Positions 24,082 to 31,030 of a stretch of 64,000 nt of DNA are shown here, piece after piece; position 1 is the first letter of the stretch; each line of letters begins with the position of its first letter. The stretch comes from Novilysobacter antarcticus (GTDB lineage: Bacteria > Pseudomonadota > Gammaproteobacteria > Xanthomonadales > Xanthomonadaceae), in the NCBI RefSeq assembly GCF_019802285.1, contig NZ_JAIEUJ010000004.1:1-64000 (forward strand). Reading direction: 5' to 3'. The notes below the pieces were generated by a model. It did no database searches. It was not told the DNA's origin and saw only the letters and a list, made by a program, of their open reading frames with translations. Made by a program: the position numbers and the translations under genes.

Positions 24082-25428
24082 ATGACCGGGATGTCGAAGG
24101 TTTTCTGGGGCGAGGGCCTGTTTCTGCGCCCGCAGCACTTCCAGCGTCAGGACGCTTATCACGAAGCCCGTGTGCAGCGCATGGCCACCACCATCGCGCC
24201 CTATTCCTGGGGCCTGCGGCAGGCCGAGTTCGACGCCCAGGCACTGGCCGCCGGGACCCTGCGCGCGCAGCAACTGTCGGTGGTGTTCCCCGACGGCGAG
24301 TTCTACAGCGCGCCTGGTGATGACCTCCTCCCGGAGGCAATGTCACTGGAAGGTTTGCCTGATGGCGTGCAGAGCACAACCGTGCACCTCGCCCTGCCAC
24401 TGCTGAAGGAGCACGGCGGCAACTGCGCCGGCGAGGGCGACAGCGGCGGCAACAGCCGCTACATGCAGGCCAACCGGGCCACGACCGACCTGTACACGGA
24501 TGCGGGCGAGGCCGAGCTGGCCTACCTGGGCAAGAACGTGCGCTTGCTGCGCGATGACGAACCGCGCGATCCGTATGTCAGCGTGCCCGTGGCGCGCATC
24601 CGCCGCAGCGCGACCGGCGGCTTCGAGATCGACCCCGGTTTCGTCGCACCCAGTCTGAGCCTGGGCTCTGCGCCGCAGTTGCAACTGCAGTTGCGGCGGC
24701 TGCTGGACAGCCTGCAGGCCAAGGCGGATGCCCTCCACGGCCTGCACCGCGAGGCCTCCCAGTCAGTCGTCGAGTTCCGCTCCGGTGACATCGCCTCGTT
24801 CTGGTTGCTGCACACCGTCAACGGCGCCTTTGCATCGCTCTCACACCTGTTCCGCCATCCGGGCCTGCACCCGGAACGGCTGCACCAGGAACTGCTGCGC
24901 CTGGCCGGCGGCCTGCTGACGTTCTCGCGCAGCCATACCCTGGCCGACCTGCCCAACTACCAGCACGCAAACCCCGAGGCCGGGTTCGAGCGCCTGTTCG
25001 AGATCATCCGCGCGCTGCTCGACACGGTGATCTCCGCGCGCTACTTCAAGATCGCCCTCAGCGAGGTCAAGCCGTCCTTCCATCTGGGGCGACTGGATTC
25101 CCAGCGCATCGACGAGGATTCCGCTTTCTACCTCGGGGTCAGTGCGGACATGCCTGCCAACGAACTGGTCCAGACCGTGCCGGTGCGCTTCAAGGTCGGC
25201 GCGCCGGACGACGTGGACAAGTGCGTGCTGTCGGCGCTGCCGGGCGTCAAGCTGGTCCACGCCGCGCAGGTTCCCGGGGCCATCCCGGTGCGCACCGGCG
25301 CGCAGTACTTCGCCATCGAGGCACGCGGTCCGCTGTACGAACGCATGATCAAGGCCCAGTCGCTGATGATCTACGTGCCGTCTGGCGTGCGCGAGCTGAA
25401 GCTGGAACTCATCGCCGTCACCCCGTAA
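24082..25428 (+). CDS. tssK: Type VI secretion baseplate protein TssK
   Basis: The connector between baseplate and membrane complex, 448 aa, the standard size. It opens with the diagnostic VFWGEGLFLRPQHFQRQD. Later features include FLLHTVNGAF-like and GGLLTFSRSHTLADLP segments and the C-terminal YFAIEARGPLYERM. The downstream tssL begins 27 bases later, indicating co-transcription. Confidence 0.95.
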   Translation: MTGMSKVFWGEGLFLRPQHFQRQDAYHEARVQRMATTIAPYSWGLRQAEFDAQALAAGTLRAQQLSVVFPDGEFYSAPGDDLLPEAMSLEGLPDGVQSTTVHLALPLLKEHGGNCAGEGDSGGNSRYMQANRATTDLYTDAGEAELAYLGKNVRLLRDDEPRDPYVSVPVARIRRSATGGFEIDPGFVAPSLSLGSAPQLQLQLRRLLDSLQAKADALHGLHREASQSVVEFRSGDIASFWLLHTVNGAFASLSHLFRHPGLHPERLHQELLRLAGGLLTFSRSHTLADLPNYQHANPEAGFERLFEIIRALLDTVISARYFKIALSEVKPSFHLGRLDSQRIDEDSAFYLGVSADMPANELVQTVPVRFKVGAPDDVDKCVLSALPGVKLVHAAQVPGAIPVRTGAQYFAIEARGPLYERMIKAQSLMIYVPSGVRELKLELIAVTP

Positions 25429-25455: not shown

Positions 25456-26244
25456 ATGAACTACCCCAATCCTCCGGTCCCCAACCGCATGCCCTCGCTG
25501 GGTCCGGCGCATGCCGCCGTACCGCCGTCCGGCGCCGCCACCCCGCGCAGCCTGGTGGAGCTGATGGCAGACGGCTTTTATTTGTTGATGCTGCTCAAGC
25601 GCGGCCAGTTGCCGTCCAGCGAAAGCGGTTTCGTGGCATCGATCCAGCGCTTCCTGGAAGGGGTCGAACGCGGCGCGGCCAAGCTGGATATCGCCGCCGA
25701 GGACATCTACGCAGCGAAATACGCGTTTTGCGCCGCCGTCGACGAGGCGATGCTGGGCCAGCCCTCGTCGCTACGCGAGGAGTGGGAACGCAACCCCCTG
25801 CAGCTGCGCCTGTTCGGCGAACACCTGGCCGGCGAGCACTTCTTCGACCGCCTCGAGGAGCTGCGCGCGCAGGGTGCCCCGCGACTGCCGTCGTTGGAGG
25901 TCTACCACTACTGCCTGCTGCTCGGCTTCGAAGGCAAGTACCGCCTGGAAGGCCCGGAGAAGCTTGGCTATCTGGTGGCCCGCCTGGGCGATGAGATCGT
26001 CTACCTGAAGGGCAAGCGCACCGGCTTCGCGCCGCACTGGGCGCCGCCGGACCGGGTTACCCACGCGTTGCGCCGGGTGATGCCGCTGTGGGCTCCGCTT
26101 GCGCTGTTCGCCGTGCTCGGCCTGGGCGCGTTTTTCACACTGCACACGATGCTGGCGCGCGATACCGATAAGCAGCTGGCCGGGTACCAGCAGGTTGTGC
26201 AGATGCCGGGCAAGACCGCGCACGTGACCATCACCCTGCCCTGA
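25456..26244 (+). CDS. tssL: Type VI secretion membrane protein TssL (DotU/IcmH family)
   Basis: An inner-membrane T6SS protein, 262 aa, that works with TssM in other systems. A disordered proline-rich start precedes the cytoplasmic DotU domain (AAKYAFCAAVDEAML, then HLAGEHFFDRLEEL, then YHYCLLLGFEGKYRL). One C-terminal membrane span (about residues 215-238) and a short periplasmic tail follow. It has no OmpA-like peptidoglycan-binding extension. The operon ends here: the next gene is hemF, not tssM, which usually accompanies tssL. Confidence 0.93.
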   Translation: MNYPNPPVPNRMPSLGPAHAAVPPSGAATPRSLVELMADGFYLLMLLKRGQLPSSESGFVASIQRFLEGVERGAAKLDIAAEDIYAAKYAFCAAVDEAMLGQPSSLREEWERNPLQLRLFGEHLAGEHFFDRLEELRAQGAPRLPSLEVYHYCLLLGFEGKYRLEGPEKLGYLVARLGDEIVYLKGKRTGFAPHWAPPDRVTHALRRVMPLWAPLALFAVLGLGAFFTLHTMLARDTDKQLAGYQQVVQMPGKTAHVTITLP

Positions 26245-26284: not shown

Positions 26285-27226
26285 ATGAACCTGCCCGCAT
26301 CCCCCAAAGAATCCGACCACGACTTCGCACGCGTCCGAAGCTACCTCACCGACCTGCAGGACCGCATCTGCGCCGCGATCGAGGCGGCCGACGGCAGCGC
26401 GCGCTTCGGTGAGGACAACTGGATCCGCGCAGAAGGCGGCGGCGGTTGCACCCGTATCCTGCGCGATGGCTCGGTATTCGAGCAGGCCGGCATCGGCTTT
26501 TCGGATGTCTCAGGGCGCACGCTGCCGCCGTCGGCGAGCGCCAATCGTCCGGAGCTGGCAGGCGCAGCGTGGCGGGCGATCGGCGTATCGCTGGTGTTCC
26601 ACCCGCGCAATCCCTACCTGCCGACCACCCACGCCAACGTGCGCCATTTCCGCGCCATGCGCGACGGGGAGACCGTCGCCTCGTGGTTCGGTGGTGGCTT
26701 CGACCTGACCCCGTTCTATCCGTTCGACGAAGACGTGCTGCACTGGCACCGGACCGCGCGTGAGTTGTGTGCGCCCTTCGGTGGAGACGCCCGCTACGAG
26801 GCGCACAAGCGTTGGTGCGATGACTACTTTTTCGTCAAGCACCGCAACGAGACCCGCGGCATTGGCGGGCTTTTCTTCGACGACCTGAGCGAGGACTTCG
26901 AGCGCGAGTTCGGCTACATGCGGGCGGTCGGCGACGGCTTCCTGGATGCCTACCTGCCAATCGTCGAGCGCCGCAAGGATGTCCCCTACGGTGACCACGA
27001 GCGCCAGTTCCAGCTCTACCGGCGCGGCCGCTATGTCGAGTTCAACCTGGTCCTGGACCGCGGCACGCTGTTCGGCCTGCAGTCGGGCGGACGCAGCGAA
27101 TCGATCCTGATGAGCCTGCCGCCGCTGGTGCGCTGGGAGTACGGCTACACGCCGGAAGCGGGCAGCGCGGAGGCCAGACTGGCCGATTACCTGCGGCCAC
27201 GCGACTGGTTGAACGAGCTGGCCTGA
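26285..27226 (+). CDS. hemF: Oxygen-dependent coproporphyrinogen III oxidase
   Basis: Converts coproporphyrinogen III to protoporphyrinogen IX with oxygen in haem synthesis. The 313-aa protein has the aerobic-enzyme hallmarks: [62 protein letters not shown] and [18 protein letters not shown]. It follows tssL after 40 bases but is functionally unrelated to secretion. Convergent with the DUF421 gene. Confidence 0.96.
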
Positions 27227-27314: not shown

Positions 27315-27800
27315 TCAGTCCTGCTCGTCGCGGTGGGTGATGATCGAGATATGCCCATTGGTTTCCAGCAGGGCCAGCTTGATGTGGTCCAGCTCGGTGC
27401 AGCTGGCCTCGCGCATCGCCTTGTCAAAATCCGCCCGACTGACCAGCTCGCGGCGCAGGACATCGCGGTGGATGTGGCCATCCCTTGCCAGCTCGACCGG
27501 ACTGCCCTCGATCAGCCGCCGCATCGGCGGGTAGCGCGCGGTCAGCCACGCCACCAGATAGTTCAGGGCCATCAGGCTGAGGGCCAACAGCATGGCACCG
27601 GTGAGGGAATTGTCGCCGCCGTTCATGCCGTTCTGGACGGCGTTGCCGACCAGGATCAGCAGGACCAGGTCGAACGGGGTGAACTGGCCGACGGCGCGCT
27701 TGCCCGACAGGCGCACCAGCAGCATCACCGCGATGTAAACCGCCACGGGTCGCAACAGGAACTGCCACCACGGAAACGATAGTTCGAACAGGTTCGACAT
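27315..27800 (-). CDS. DUF421 membrane protein (YetF/YcaP-like)
   Basis: A 161-aa protein with two or three N-terminal membrane segments (WWQFLLRPVAVYIAVMLLVR, then VLLILVGNAV, then MLLALSLMALNYLVAWL). A cytoplasmic alpha/beta domain follows, with the family patterns RLSGKRAVGQFTPFDLV and SPVELARDGHIH. The ATG at 27800 gives the shortest full family match. The function of DUF421 proteins is not established; some have been linked to envelope or spore physiology. It is isolated between hemF (convergent) and the small RNA candidate. Confidence 0.85.
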   Translation of the reverse strand: MSNLFELSFPWWQFLLRPVAVYIAVMLLVRLSGKRAVGQFTPFDLVLLILVGNAVQNGMNGGDNSLTGAMLLALSLMALNYLVAWLTARYPPMRRLIEGSPVELARDGHIHRDVLRRELVSRADFDKAMREASCTELDHIKLALLETNGHISIITHRDEQD

Positions 27801-27844
27801 GGATCGGGTTCCAGCGTGGCGACATGCAGAACCGTACACCAGGG

Positions 27845-27963
27845 CAATAAAAAGCCCCGCAGGCAGGGGGGGCCGGCGGGGCTGGTGGAGCTAGGCCTGG
27901 GGAGGGGCCTTGGCTCCGGGATCACTCCAGGGGAGGGAGAGATCTGCGACAGGCGTTGCACCT
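27845..27963 (-). ncRNA. sX13-like small RNA candidate
   Basis: Read on the minus strand, this gap downstream of polA folds into successive hairpins. The first pairs ACAGG with CCTGT. A later stem (GGAGC/GCTCC enclosing AGGCC/GGCCT) has a CCTCCCCA loop. The last is a GC-rich terminator hairpin with a C-rich loop followed by TTTTTATT. A TATGCT -10-like box at 27975-27970 would start a transcript of about 118 nt near 27963; no good -35 was seen. Several CCCC loops and this size match the described Xanthomonas sRNA sX13, which pairs C-rich loops with G-rich mRNA sites. The assignment is from memory of that family and from structure only. Confidence 0.6.
27846..27883 (-). terminator. Intrinsic terminator of the sRNA candidate or polA transcript
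   Basis: On the minus strand AGCCCCGC (27883-27876) pairs with GCGGGGCT (27860-27853) around a 15-base C-rich loop, followed by a T tract ending TTTTTATT. This is a strong rho-independent terminator. Confidence 0.85.
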
Positions 27964-28067
27964 GTCGCGAGCATATGACCACTATTTGCATTGACGGTTC
28001 GTGAAGATTGGGACCGGCTGCAGAAAAGGTTCAGGATTGATTCATGGCCGGAATGTCTGCCAACGTG

Positions 28068-28082
28068 ACGTTAAAATAACGT
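28068..28082. promoter_or_regulatory. Perfect inverted repeat, possible operator
   Basis: ACGTTA-AAA-TAACGT is a perfect 6-bp inverted repeat with a 3-base spacer. It stands in an A/T-rich patch between polA and the small RNA candidate, about 105 bases upstream of the inferred sRNA start. It could bind a dimeric regulator. No protein is assigned. Confidence 0.3.
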
Positions 28083-28228
28083 TATTGCGCTGAATCGGCG
28101 CTACGTTTGCCGAAGTGGCTGTGACACCGTGCGGGAAAGGCCGAAAACGGCTGTTTTCGCGGCGACCGGTGGGTCGATGCCCCATTGCTCCGGTCCAACC
28201 GTCCGCCGCACCGCCAACACGCTCAACG

Positions 28229-31030
28229 TCAGTGCGCTTCATCCCAGTTCGCGCCTACGCCGCTCTCCACCAGCAGCGGCACCCGCAACTGCGCGGCGCC
28301 GACCATCCTCTTCACCACCTGCTCCAGCAGCGGGTCTACAAAGTCCGCATCAACCTCGAACACCAGCTCATCGTGCACCTGCAGGATCATCAGCGCCCGC
28401 TCGGCGTGATCGGCCAACCACGTGTGGATCTGGATCATGGCGCGCTTGATGATGTCCGCCGCCGTGCCCTGCATGGGCGCGTTGATCGCGGCGCGCTCGG
28501 CGCCGGCACGCAGGCCCTGGTTGCGGGCGTGGATATTGTCCAGATACAGGCGCCGGCCGAACACGGTCTCCACATAGCCGCGTTCGCGGGCCTGCTCGCG
28601 GGTACGGTCCATGAACTCGCGCACGCCGGGATAGCGGGCGAAGTACAGGCCGATGTAGTCCTGCGCATCGCCGCGTGACACCCCCAGCTGCTTGGCCAGG
28701 CCGAATGCGCTCATGCCGTACATCAGGCCGAAGTTGATCGCCTTGGCGGCGCGGCGGTCGTCGCTGCTGACGGTGTCGAGCGTTTTCCCGAACACCTCCG
28801 CGGCGGTCGCCTTGTGGATGTCGGCACCGGCCGCGAACGCGCGCAGCAGGCCTTCGTCACCCGACAGGTGGGCCATGATCCGCAGCTCGATCTGCGAGTA
28901 GTCGCAGGCGACGATGCGCCGGCCCGGCGGTGCGACAAAGGCGGTGCGGATGTGGCGGCCGTCGACGGTGCGGATGGGGATGTTCTGCAGGTTGGGGTCG
29001 CTGGACGCCAGCCGGCCGGTCGCGGCGCCGGCCTGGTGGTAACTGGTGTGGACCCGGCCGGTGTCGGGATTGATCATCTGCGGCAGCTTGTCGGTGTAGG
29101 TGCTGCGCAATTTGGCCAGGCTGCGGTAGTCGAGGATCACCCGCGGCAGCTCGTGCAGGTCGGCGATCGCCTCCAGCGCCTCCTCGTTGGCGGAGGGCTG
29201 GCCCTTTGGTGTCTTCACCATGGCCGGCAGCTTGAGTTCCTCGAACAGCAGCGCGCAGACCTGCTTGGGCGAATCCAGGTTGAAGCTGCGACCCGCCAGT
29301 TCGGTGGCCTTCTGCTGCGCGGCGAGCATGCGCTTGCCCAGGTCCGCCGACTGCCGGCGCAGCTCGTCCGCATCGACCAGCACGCCGTTCGCCTCGATCC
29401 GCTCCAGCACCGGCACCAGCGGCATCTCGATCTCGCGGTAGACCTTCTCCAGCGCCGGTTCGGCGGCCAGCTTGGCCGACAGGACGCGGTGCAGGCGCAG
29501 GGTGATGTCGGCGTCCTCGGCGCCGTAGTTGACGGCGTCGTCCACGGCGACCTGGTTGAAGGTGATCTGCTTGGCGCCCTTGCCGGCGATGTCGGTGTAC
29601 TTGGTGGTCTCGTAGCCCAGGTAACGCAGGGCCAGCGAATCCATGTCGTGGCGACTTGCGGTGGCGTTGTGGACGAAGCTCTCCAGCATCGTGTCGTCGG
29701 CATAGCCGCGGATCGCCACGCCGTGGCGACGCAGCACGTGCATCTCGTACTTGCCGTGCTGGCCGACCTTGCGTTTGGCCGGGTCGGTCAACAGGGGCCG
29801 CAGGGCGTCGAGCACCTCCGCGTGGTCCAGCTGCGCCGGTGCGCCCGGGTAGTCGTGGCCGACCGGGATGTAGCAGGCGCGGCCGGGTTCGACGGCGAAG
29901 CTCAGGCCGACCAGGTTGGCGCGCATCGCGTCGAGCGAGTCGGTCTCGGTGTCGAAGGCGAACTCCTCGGCGCCCTGCAAGCGGGCAATCCAGGCGTCGA
30001 GCTTTTCGCGGGTGTCCACGCACTCGTACTCGCCCGGGGCCGAGAGCGCCGGATCGGGCGCCTCAGCCACCGCCGTATTGTTGCGGGCGTAGCCGGCGGC
30101 GGTGTTGCGCACGCTGCCGGCATCGGTCGCCGCGTCGCCCGGGCCATCGGCGGCCTCCCCGCCCAGATCACGCAGGGCCTGCTTGAACCCGAAGCGGGCG
30201 TAAAGACGGCGCAGGTCGTCGACGTGCTGTTCGCGCAGGACCAGCTCGGTCGGGCTGCGGCCGACGTCGACGTCCAGCTTGATGGTCGTCAGGGTGCGGT
30301 TGAGCGGCAGGCGGGGGAGCGCGGCGCGCAGGTTCTCACCGATCTTGCCCTTGATGCTGTCGGCATTGGCGATCACGCCGTCCAGCGTGCCGTACTCGGC
30401 CAACCACTTGGCGGCGGTCTTGGGGCCGCACTTGTCGACACCGGGAATGTTGTCGATCTTGTCGCCCATCAGCGCCAGGTAATCGACGATCTGGTCCGCG
30501 CGCACGCCATGCCTCTCGATCACCGCCTCGTCGTTGTCCAGGCGGCTGCCGCTCATGGTGTTGACCAGCGCGATACCCGCGCGCGCCTCGCCATTGGCGT
30601 CGTGGCCGCTGCGCACCAGCTGGGCGAAGTCCTTGTCGCTGGTGGAGATGGTGACGTCGATCCCGGCATCGGCGGCCTGCACGGCAAGCGTGCCGATCAC
30701 GTCGTCCGCCTCAACCCCGTCGATGCGGATGATGTCGATGCCCAGCGCGTGCACGATGTCGCACATCGGCTGTATCTGCGGTCGCAGGTCCTCGGGCATG
30801 GGCGGGCGGTTGGCCTTGTACTCGGGGTCCAGGTCGTCGCGGAAGGTCTTACCCGGCGCATCGATCACAAACGCGATGTAGTCCGGGTTTTCCTTCAGCG
30901 TGGCGCGCAACATGTTGACCACCCCGAACAGCGCGCCGGTTGGTTCGCCCTCGGCATTGGTCAGCGGAGGCAGCGCGTGGAAGGCGCGGTAGAGGTAGCT
31001 GGAACCGTCGATCAGCACGAGTCTTTTCAT
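28229..31030 (-). CDS. polA: DNA polymerase I
   Basis: Full-length, 933 aa, for Okazaki fragment processing and repair synthesis. An N-terminal 5' nuclease domain opens with LVLIDGSSYLYRAFHALPPL and includes SDKDFAQLV. The 3'-5' proofreading domain has FAFDTETDSLD with catalytic acidic residues kept. The polymerase domain has motif A CDYSQIELR (Asp710), the O-helix KAINFGLMYGMSAFG and motif C QVHDELVFEV (Asp887). It is divergent from the DUF2782 gene, which accompanies polA in other gammaproteobacteria. The terminator for this gene may be the one at 27846-27883. Confidence 0.97.
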   Translation of the reverse strand: MKRLVLIDGSSYLYRAFHALPPLTNAEGEPTGALFGVVNMLRATLKENPDYIAFVIDAPGKTFRDDLDPEYKANRPPMPEDLRPQIQPMCDIVHALGIDIIRIDGVEADDVIGTLAVQAADAGIDVTISTSDKDFAQLVRSGHDANGEARAGIALVNTMSGSRLDNDEAVIERHGVRADQIVDYLALMGDKIDNIPGVDKCGPKTAAKWLAEYGTLDGVIANADSIKGKIGENLRAALPRLPLNRTLTTIKLDVDVGRSPTELVLREQHVDDLRRLYARFGFKQALRDLGGEAADGPGDAATDAGSVRNTAAGYARNNTAVAEAPDPALSAPGEYECVDTREKLDAWIARLQGAEEFAFDTETDSLDAMRANLVGLSFAVEPGRACYIPVGHDYPGAPAQLDHAEVLDALRPLLTDPAKRKVGQHGKYEMHVLRRHGVAIRGYADDTMLESFVHNATASRHDMDSLALRYLGYETTKYTDIAGKGAKQITFNQVAVDDAVNYGAEDADITLRLHRVLSAKLAAEPALEKVYREIEMPLVPVLERIEANGVLVDADELRRQSADLGKRMLAAQQKATELAGRSFNLDSPKQVCALLFEELKLPAMVKTPKGQPSANEEALEAIADLHELPRVILDYRSLAKLRSTYTDKLPQMINPDTGRVHTSYHQAGAATGRLASSDPNLQNIPIRTVDGRHIRTAFVAPPGRRIVACDYSQIELRIMAHLSGDEGLLRAFAAGADIHKATAAEVFGKTLDTVSSDDRRAAKAINFGLMYGMSAFGLAKQLGVSRGDAQDYIGLYFARYPGVREFMDRTREQARERGYVETVFGRRLYLDNIHARNQGLRAGAERAAINAPMQGTAADIIKRAMIQIHTWLADHAERALMILQVHDELVFEVDADFVDPLLEQVVKRMVGAAQLRVPLLVESGVGANWDEAH

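What the first reader, a model, noticed from the sequence alone, without database searches (positions are those of the whole stretch)
27845..27975. sX13-like sRNA candidate downstream of polA
A minus-strand segment of about 118 nt has serial hairpins with C-rich loops and ends in a strong intrinsic terminator. This matches what is described for the Xanthomonas regulator sX13, which targets G-rich mRNA sites. If real it could regulate many genes, including surface and secretion functions.
Basis: partly seen in the sequence, partly recalled or inferred. Interest (0 to 1): 0.6.

Follow-up and report, generated by a model that had tools for sequence, protein, structure and literature searches.

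The report
sX13 regulatory RNA beside polA gene
This is a genuine copy of a known small regulatory RNA, and comparing it with relatives suggests that it has an overlooked extra hairpin and belongs to a much older, wider family of RNAs found next to the DNA polymerase I gene in many bacteria.

Summary
polA lies upstream on the same strand; the host is Lysobacter-like. By itself this is an ordinary family member.

Three results go beyond the published description (PMC3771888). (1) A fourth, 5' stem-loop (27968-27946) straddles the published start; 6 of 7 pairs change on both sides among 59 family sequences. (2) A sigmaE-type core, GAAC-N17-GTC, lies upstream, as at rpoE. (3) The RNA is not confined to Xanthomonadaceae: 54 of 112 polA-downstream regions of other Gammaproteobacteria hold a match on polA's strand. 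A model built only from RNAs outside the family finds the window RNA at 102.9 bits and nothing else in the window, and finds a Pseudomon-1/ErsA locus.

I infer one ancient polA-linked family that includes sX13, ErsA and probably Burkholderia anti-hemB; convergence is not excluded. Transcription, true 5' end and targets in this organism are untested.

The parts
27848..27970 (-). sX13 RNA gene including the extra 5' stem-loop (extent of the match to models R1 and R2)
   Evidence: R1 134 bits (the sequence is in R1's training set), R2 102.9 bits (R2 was built without the family), Rfam RF02232 72 bits over 27957-27848
27946..27968 (-). SL0: 5' stem-loop, absent from the Rfam model and from the published structure; the Rfam start (27957) lies in its loop
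   Evidence: inverted repeat, fold, covariation on a structure-free alignment
27920..27944 (-). SL1, loop CUCCCCU
   Evidence: fold, Rfam consensus structure
27887..27917 (-). SL2, loop CCUCCCCA
   Evidence: fold, Rfam consensus structure
27853..27883 (-). SL3, loop CCCCCCU, intrinsic terminator followed by a T-rich tail
   Evidence: fold, terminator scan
27977..28000 (-). sigmaE-type promoter core GAAC-N17-GTC (predicted)
   Evidence: site starting at 28002 ranks 33rd of 255,864 placements in the window with a matrix trained outside the order; same core upstream of rpoE in ten genus loci
28229..31030 (-). polA, DNA polymerase I; stop 271 nt before the Rfam start
   Evidence: Pfam DNA_pol_A and exonuclease domains; gap
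27315..27839 (-). downstream gene with a DUF421/YetF C-terminal domain (GTG start shown; an internal ATG is possible)
   Evidence: Pfam PF04239, ORF list

Best explanation
The segment is the sX13 gene of a Lysobacter-like bacterium. Shown by computation: it is a full-length family member with polA upstream on the same strand and a terminator-like 3' end. Strongly supported: the RNA has a fourth stem-loop (SL0) at its 5' end, which the Rfam model and the published 'unstructured 5' region' lack. Inferred: transcription starts near 27968 from a sigmaE (RpoE)-type promoter, so the RNA should respond to envelope or other stress; the 115-nt form described in Xanthomonas, which starts inside the SL0 loop, is then a processed product or a mis-set start. 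Inferred from the Xanthomonas work: the C-rich loops pair with G-rich sites near start codons and block translation without needing Hfq; hfq itself is a likely conserved target. Also inferred: sX13 is the Xanthomonadaceae branch of an older Gammaproteobacterial family of polA-linked RNAs that includes ErsA and probably Burkholderia anti-hemB.
For: sX13 identity; polA upstream on the same strand in 100 of 104 family loci. SL0: 98.5% of 413 cells paired, 6 of 7 pairs with changes on both sides, 0 of 500 shuffles as high on any measure, slid controls 27-55% paired; RNAalifold finds it unprompted. Promoter: GAAC-N16-18-GTC in 43 of 66 family upstreams, the same core at rpoE, in class loci GAAC-N16-19-TC[TA] in 27 of 44 with about 1.35 expected. 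Wider family: R1 hits of 15 bits or more on polA's strand in 44 of 112 class regions and on the other strand in 5; control 43 kb gave one hit of 7.2 bits; R2, built without the family, finds the window RNA at 102.9 bits and the ErsA locus at 36.2 bits. Target: GGGG at -13 to -10 of hfq in 10 of 10 genus genomes.
Against: No transcript, start site or target was tested. The published start is 27957-equivalent, inside SL0. 23 of 66 family upstreams lack the full GAAC...GTC core, and the four printed upstreams of genus g17, presumably Xanthomonas, have none. 58 of 112 class regions gave no match on polA's strand. R1 does not find ErsA; only R2 does. On the window, Rfam's own ErsA model gives no hit at E<=10 and anti-hemB gives 11.4 bits. 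The best Rfam hit outside the family (G422, 53.8 bits, over the cut-off) has no polA in an 11-kb stretch (L120). Sequences of one family are related, so shuffles overstate significance.
Confidence: 0.8

Rival explanations
1. The inverted repeat upstream is a DNA operator for a dimeric regulator; the RNA starts at 27957 with an unstructured 5' end, as published.
For: The published 115-nt RNA starts at what corresponds to 27957: 175 bp after the polA stop in the paper, and 175 nt in L006 and L007. Structure probing of the 115-nt in-vitro RNA showed RNase T1 cuts in the 5' region (PMC3771888).
Against: Both arms change together in many ways and in RNAs outside the family (helix 1: 8 of 8 pairs with double changes, 92.6% paired, on a model-fitted alignment). 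Over eight pairs, 59 cells are G-U or U-G (47 of them one conserved U-G pair) and 8 are other mismatches, which suits RNA. The probed RNA lacked the 5' arm by design. The only core found lies 20 to 43 nt upstream of 27957, far for a start there (inference).
Confidence: 0.1
2. RNAs with C-rich loops arose several times beside polA; sX13, ErsA and anti-hemB look alike by convergence on the same targets and the same stress promoter.
For: C-rich loops and terminator stems are easy to reach. alpha-r7 has a similar look and weak R1 scores but is divergent from polA. R1 misses ErsA. 58 of 112 regions have no match on polA's strand.
Against: Same side and strand of polA, promoter core, 5' hairpin and hairpin order recur together. 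R2, built without Xanthomonadaceae, recovers the window RNA at 102.9 bits over its full length. Some loci match the sX13, ErsA, anti-hemB and ar14 models at the same place.
Confidence: 0.25
3. It uses a housekeeping sigma70 promoter and is constitutive, as reported for Xanthomonas.
For: PMC3771888 calls sX13 constitutively expressed, although it also reports higher levels in high salt, at 37 C and in minimal medium. The conserved block includes ATA, TATA-like.
Against: The sigma70 scan finds no site in 27700-28300 (a strict consensus). The conserved spacing and core match the rpoE upstream.
Confidence: 0.3
4. It is only the polA terminator or 3' UTR, not a separate RNA.
For: It follows polA on the same strand after 271 nt.
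Against: Full-length sX13 match; sX13 is an expressed, functional RNA in Xanthomonas (PMC3771888); conserved upstream region and SL0.
Confidence: 0.02

Closest known systems
sX13 (Rfam RF02232), Xanthomonas; PMC3771888
   Same: Full-length model match, polA upstream on the same strand, three C-loop hairpins, terminator.
   Different: An extra 5' stem-loop and a sigmaE-type core are seen here and across the family; the paper describes 115 nt and an unstructured 5' region, and confines the gene to Xanthomonadaceae.
ErsA / Pseudomon-1 (Rfam RF01719), Pseudomonas
   Same: ErsA is AlgU/sigma22-dependent (PMC5819304, passages) and lies in the polA-engB interval (PMC8575079, passages). L296, an ErsA locus by Rfam (121.3 bits), is just after polA on its strand, with GAAC-N18-GTC upstream, a 5' hairpin, and an R2 match of 36.2 bits.
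   Different: Its inner part has diverged: R1 does not find it, and the ErsA model does not hit the window at E<=10. ErsA activation of an anr reporter was lost without Hfq, whereas sX13 is reported as Hfq-independent.
anti-hemB / Burkholderia RNA 7 (Rfam RF02837)
   Same: Its model matches many polA-downstream RNAs found here, L213 over the cut-off at 58.4 bits; tandem copies follow polA in L256.
   Different: Only 11.4 bits on the window. I did not check the polA position of a named Burkholderia copy.
alpha-r7 (Rfam RF02342), Alphaproteobacteria
   Same: Next to polA (7 of 9 loci), serial hairpins with C-rich loops; R1 15-23 bits in 9 of 9 loci, R2 hits in 4 of 9.
   Different: Divergent from polA, upstream of it, and no GAAC...GTC core seen.
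Spot 42, E. coli
   Same: Encoded at the polA locus (PMC3771888).
   Different: No Rfam hit on the window at E<=10; requires Hfq and lacks sequence similarity to sX13 according to the paper.

Membership tests
sX13 (RF02232) | Covariance-model score above the curated cut-off over the full length | tested here: met
   72 bits, cut-off 50, positions 1-115
sX13 (RF02232) | Downstream of polA on the same strand | tested here: met
   271 nt after the polA stop
sX13 (RF02232) | Three stem-loops with 4C/5C loops and a terminator | tested here: met
   fold, terminator
sX13 (RF02232) | Unstructured 5' region | tested here: not met
   SL0 covaries across the family. This questions the published description, not membership: Rfam's defining region is met
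sX13 (RF02232) | Stable transcript | not testable with these tools
   no RNA data
sX13 (RF02232) | Represses mRNAs with G-rich sites, hfq among them | tested here: inconclusive
   GGGG at -13 to -10 of hfq in 10 of 10 genus genomes, at the published +9 site in 4 of 10 and not in the window's own genome; no activity data
ErsA / Pseudomon-1 (RF01719) | Rfam model match | tested here: not met
   no hit on the window region at E<=10
ErsA / Pseudomon-1 (RF01719) | sigma22/AlgU (RpoE-type) promoter | tested here: inconclusive
   GAAC-N17-GTC core present; use not shown
anti-hemB (RF02837) | Rfam model match | tested here: not met
   11.4 bits, cut-off 49.5
alpha-r7 (RF02342) | Rfam model match | tested here: not met
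   no hit at E<=10
Spot 42 | Rfam model match | tested here: not met
   no hit at E<=10

The most novel reading that the evidence does not exclude
sX13, ErsA and Burkholderia anti-hemB are lineage names for one ancient RNA gene, fixed downstream of polA across much of Gammaproteobacteria and driven by sigmaE-type promoters. It carries a conserved 5' cap hairpin, whose loop holds the published sX13 5' end, and C-rich loops that silence G-rich ribosome sites: a class-wide stress regulator hidden under local names.
Probability: 0.6. Interest if true: 0.75.

Novelty: new member of a known kind. Interest (0 to 1): 0.5.

Why it matters
The element itself is an expected sX13 copy; the comparison is what matters. 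The 2013 sX13 paper calls the gene exclusive to Xanthomonadaceae and asks whether the polA locus of other bacteria also encodes such RNAs. The data here point to yes: 54 of 112 polA-downstream regions from other Gammaproteobacteria hold a match on polA's strand, with a shared promoter core and an added 5' hairpin. If right, work on sX13, ErsA and anti-hemB can be pooled, the Rfam model should be extended at its 5' end and considered for a clan, and constructs that lack SL0, such as the 115-nt clone, deserve a second look.

Tried and rejected
A sigma70 consensus scan found no promoter in 27700-28300. Model R1 as a detector of ErsA failed; R2 succeeded. alpha-r7 as a member is left open: divergent from polA, no core. 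A weak second Rfam hit in the own genome (G000:C4:167996-168082, 24.2 bits) is taken as chance; no polA in its flank. Class hits L196-L198 (E 0.0026 to 0.0068) have no polA in the flank held (L197 is cut by the contig end) and were dropped. Order-level hits without polA nearby were kept out of R2: G422, G413, G404 and G399 show none in 10-11 kb stretches (L120, L122-L124); G408 has polA about 2.2 kb upstream on the same strand (L121).

Literature searches (open-licence PMC library only): sX13, 21 papers, all listed; ErsA, sX13, Spot 42, polA; 20 of 1,617 listed; ErsA; 15 of 144 listed; sX13 with RpoE or promoter; 12 of 696 listed; dRNA-seq; 12 of 21 listed; ErsA with sX13: 0 papers; anti-hemB; 10 of 223 listed; 'downstream of polA' with sRNA: 1 paper, PMC3771888; anti-hemB with ErsA: 0. 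Of PMC3771888 I saw the abstract and outline, section 18 part 1, section 5 parts 1 and 3, section 23 and passages, not the whole text or supplements. Of PMC5819304, PMC8575079, PMC12189769, PMC4652430, PMC5688073 and PMC3521395 I saw passages only. The paper that first mapped sX13 (PMC3300014) is not held, so how its 5' end was obtained is unknown to me.

Full report
What is there. The minus strand of 27845-27975 folds into four hairpins in a row, far more stable than shuffled sequence (z -7.06, 0 of 200 shuffles as low). Rfam's sX13 model matches 27957-27848 from its first to its last position at 72 bits (cut-off 50, E 1.9e-11) and is the only over-threshold RNA family in the 64-kb window. 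The whole genome (2.78 Mb, 6 contigs) has one match at E<=0.001. polA (Pfam) lies upstream on the same strand, its stop 271 nt before the Rfam start; a gene with a DUF421/YetF C-terminal domain follows. The nearest named relative by PolA is Lysobacter sp. A03 (97%; records very near the window's own genome may be left out there). Of 395 genomes of the same family, 378 have a match at E<=0.001 and 325 exceed the cut-off. polA is upstream on the same strand in 100 of 104 family loci that I held with 1.5-kb flanks; L089, L092, L111 and L116 show none.

A missed 5' hairpin. Upstream of the Rfam start lies the partner of an inverted repeat, 27946-27953 with 27961-27968. The published sX13 is 115 nt, begins 175 bp after the polA stop in X. 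campestris pv. vesicatoria, and is described with an unstructured 5' region (PMC3771888). Two loci of genus g17, the best-scoring and presumably Xanthomonas, have the same 175-nt gap to the Rfam start (L006, L007), so the published start and the Rfam start appear to be the same base. In 59 family sequences aligned without a structure, 98.5% of 413 cells of a 7-pair stem across this start are paired; 6 of 7 pairs have changes on both sides, 49 cells against 13.2 in shuffles; none of 500 shuffles reaches any of the five measures; slid controls pair at 27-55%. Relatedness inflates such contrasts, as the tool warns. RNAalifold finds the stem unprompted. Over eight pairs (472 cells), 59 cells are G-U or U-G, 47 of them one conserved U-G pair, and 8 are other mismatches. 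An RNA hairpin explains this better than a DNA operator. The annotated start falls in the hairpin's loop, GC|AA. I infer that the primary RNA starts near 27968 and that the 115-nt form is a cleavage product or a mis-set start.

Promoter. In 66 family upstream regions the conserved blocks are CTTCACGAAC at -50 to -41 and TGGT...ATA at -25 to -16 from the Rfam start; 43 of 66 have GAAC-N16-18-GTC, 7 only GAAC, 4 only GTC, 12 neither. rpoE is present in 10 of 10 genus genomes, and GAAC-N17 or N18-GTC lies 72-92 bases before the model match in each of the ten loci. A matrix trained on 23 class sites outside the order ranks the window's sX13 site 33rd of 255,864 placements; 92 of 103 family upstreams exceed the 99.9th percentile against 83 of 1000 random 80-nt regions, although only 66 of the 103 have their best site at -47 to -45. 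The four printed g17 upstreams have lost the core (GATC, GTGTTATAT), which would fit the constitutive expression reported in Xanthomonas. sigmaE use in this organism is likely but unproven.

Beyond the family. PMC3771888 states that sX13 is found only in Xanthomonadaceae. With the Rfam model, 13 of 35 genomes of the order outside the family had a hit at E<=0.1, one over the cut-off; polA was in the flank of 6 of the 15 loci L046-L060. Model R1, built from the 59 family sequences with SL0, gave matches at E<=0.1 in 52 of 121 order genomes, 33 of them outside the family; of the 31 loci L156-L187 outside the family, 15 have polA in the flank held and 16 do not, three of these being cut by contig ends. 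Run on 369 genomes of the class, R1 matched 15 at E<=0.01, 10 of these outside the order. In 7 of the 10, which are all those with E<=0.00114, polA lies in the flank, upstream on the same strand, with gaps of 52-1313 nt over eight copies. R1 matches of 15 bits or more lie on polA's strand in 44 loci and on the other strand in 5; at 30 bits or more, 14 and 0. In these 44, GAAC-N16-19-TC[TA] occurs near the start in 27, about 1.35 expected, and the 5' end folds better than 95% of shuffles in 26. Control: 43 kb around rpoE loci gave one hit of 7.2 bits.

A model without the family. I gave R1 47 outside loci, chosen because they were polA-linked hits; 49 matches from 46 of them passed E<=0.005 (L241 did not; four copies come from L190). 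On this alignment, which is fitted to the model, 92.2% of 1585 cells are paired against 59.6% in shuffles and under 50% when slid, and 36 of 36 pairs change on both sides; RNAalifold gives 34 pairs of much the same structure. Model R2 built from it hits the window RNA at 102.9 bits (27970-27848) and nothing else in the window at E<=1; the other hits of that search are 4 of 9 alpha-r7 loci. Among 87 regions not used to build it, R2 finds matches in 33 at E<=1: 29 on polA's strand, 20 of them with a looser GAAC/GAAAC...TC core, and 4 on the other strand, 3 of them with that core (no background was computed for the looser pattern). In all, 54 of 112 regions carry a match on polA's strand (L241 counted on its R1 score alone) and 58 do not. 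One of the new ones is L296, Pseudomon-1/ErsA by Rfam (121.3 bits): R2 36.2 bits, E 2.3e-5, 76 nt after polA, with GAACTTCGGGCCAAACAGGCGAGTC upstream and a 5' hairpin. Rfam's anti-hemB model matches many of the same RNAs, L213 over its cut-off; ErsA, ar14 and ar7 models match some, below their cut-offs. No clan is shown for sX13, ErsA, anti-hemB, ar7 or ar14 in these outputs. In two of four regions whose long frames I printed, an EngB-like frame runs towards the RNA (L213, L239; named from its motif by recall), which recalls the polA-engB place given for ErsA (PMC8575079, passage). alpha-r7 (9 of 200 phylum genomes) has a similar look and R1 scores of 15-23 bits, but is divergent from polA in the 7 of 9 loci where polA is seen; I leave it out.

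How it works. From PMC3771888: mutation of loops 2 and 3 impaired function in planta, mutation of loop 1 did not; repression needs G-rich motifs near start codons; Hfq is dispensable; hfq and pilH are among the repressed genes (abstract). In this genus hfq has GGGG starting at -13 to -10 in 10 of 10 genomes, and at the place of the Xanthomonas site, nine bases into the gene, in 4 of 10; the window's own genome reads GGGA there. A direct block of the hfq ribosome site is the natural prediction. The type III secretion effect in Xanthomonas is regarded as indirect and need not hold here.

Verdict. The element is a new member of a known family (0.97 for that point alone). SL0 is about 0.88 likely to be part of the RNA, sigmaE control about 0.65, common descent with ErsA about 0.7 and with anti-hemB about 0.6; these are judgements. 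No held paper contains both sX13 and ErsA or both anti-hemB and ErsA; papers under other licences could not be searched.

Noticed in passing
L190 (G665) 1501, 1718, 1921, 2136; L256 (G757) 153-893; L118 (G022); L119 (G049): Tandem copies of the RNA after polA: four in L190, five in L256, two in L118 and three in L119. The locus seems prone to local duplication.
   Followed up: partly
L282, L212, L279: RNAs matched by R2 (58.2, 54.9 and 33.9 bits) with a GAAC...TC core, on the strand opposite to polA: perhaps inverted copies.
   Followed up: no
L314-L317, L319, L320, L322: alpha-r7 RNAs lie upstream of polA and divergent from it, not downstream as sX13 does, although both are spoken of as polA-locus RNAs.
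   Followed up: partly
L120 (G422), L122 (G413), L123 (G404), L124 (G399): sX13-like hits in the order, one of them over the Rfam cut-off, with no polA in 10-11 kb stretches: moved copies, paralogues or chance.
   Followed up: partly
window 24082-25428 (+), 25456-26244 (+), 26285-27226 (+): Type VI secretion genes (VasE/ImpJ and DotU domains) and a coproporphyrinogen III oxidase gene lie just beyond the DUF421 gene.
   Followed up: no
window 55556 (-): The best sigmaE-like site in the window by the class-trained matrix, TTGAACTTTTCATCAGATCCCCCAGTTGTATGT, 19.78; the gene behind it was not examined.
   Followed up: no
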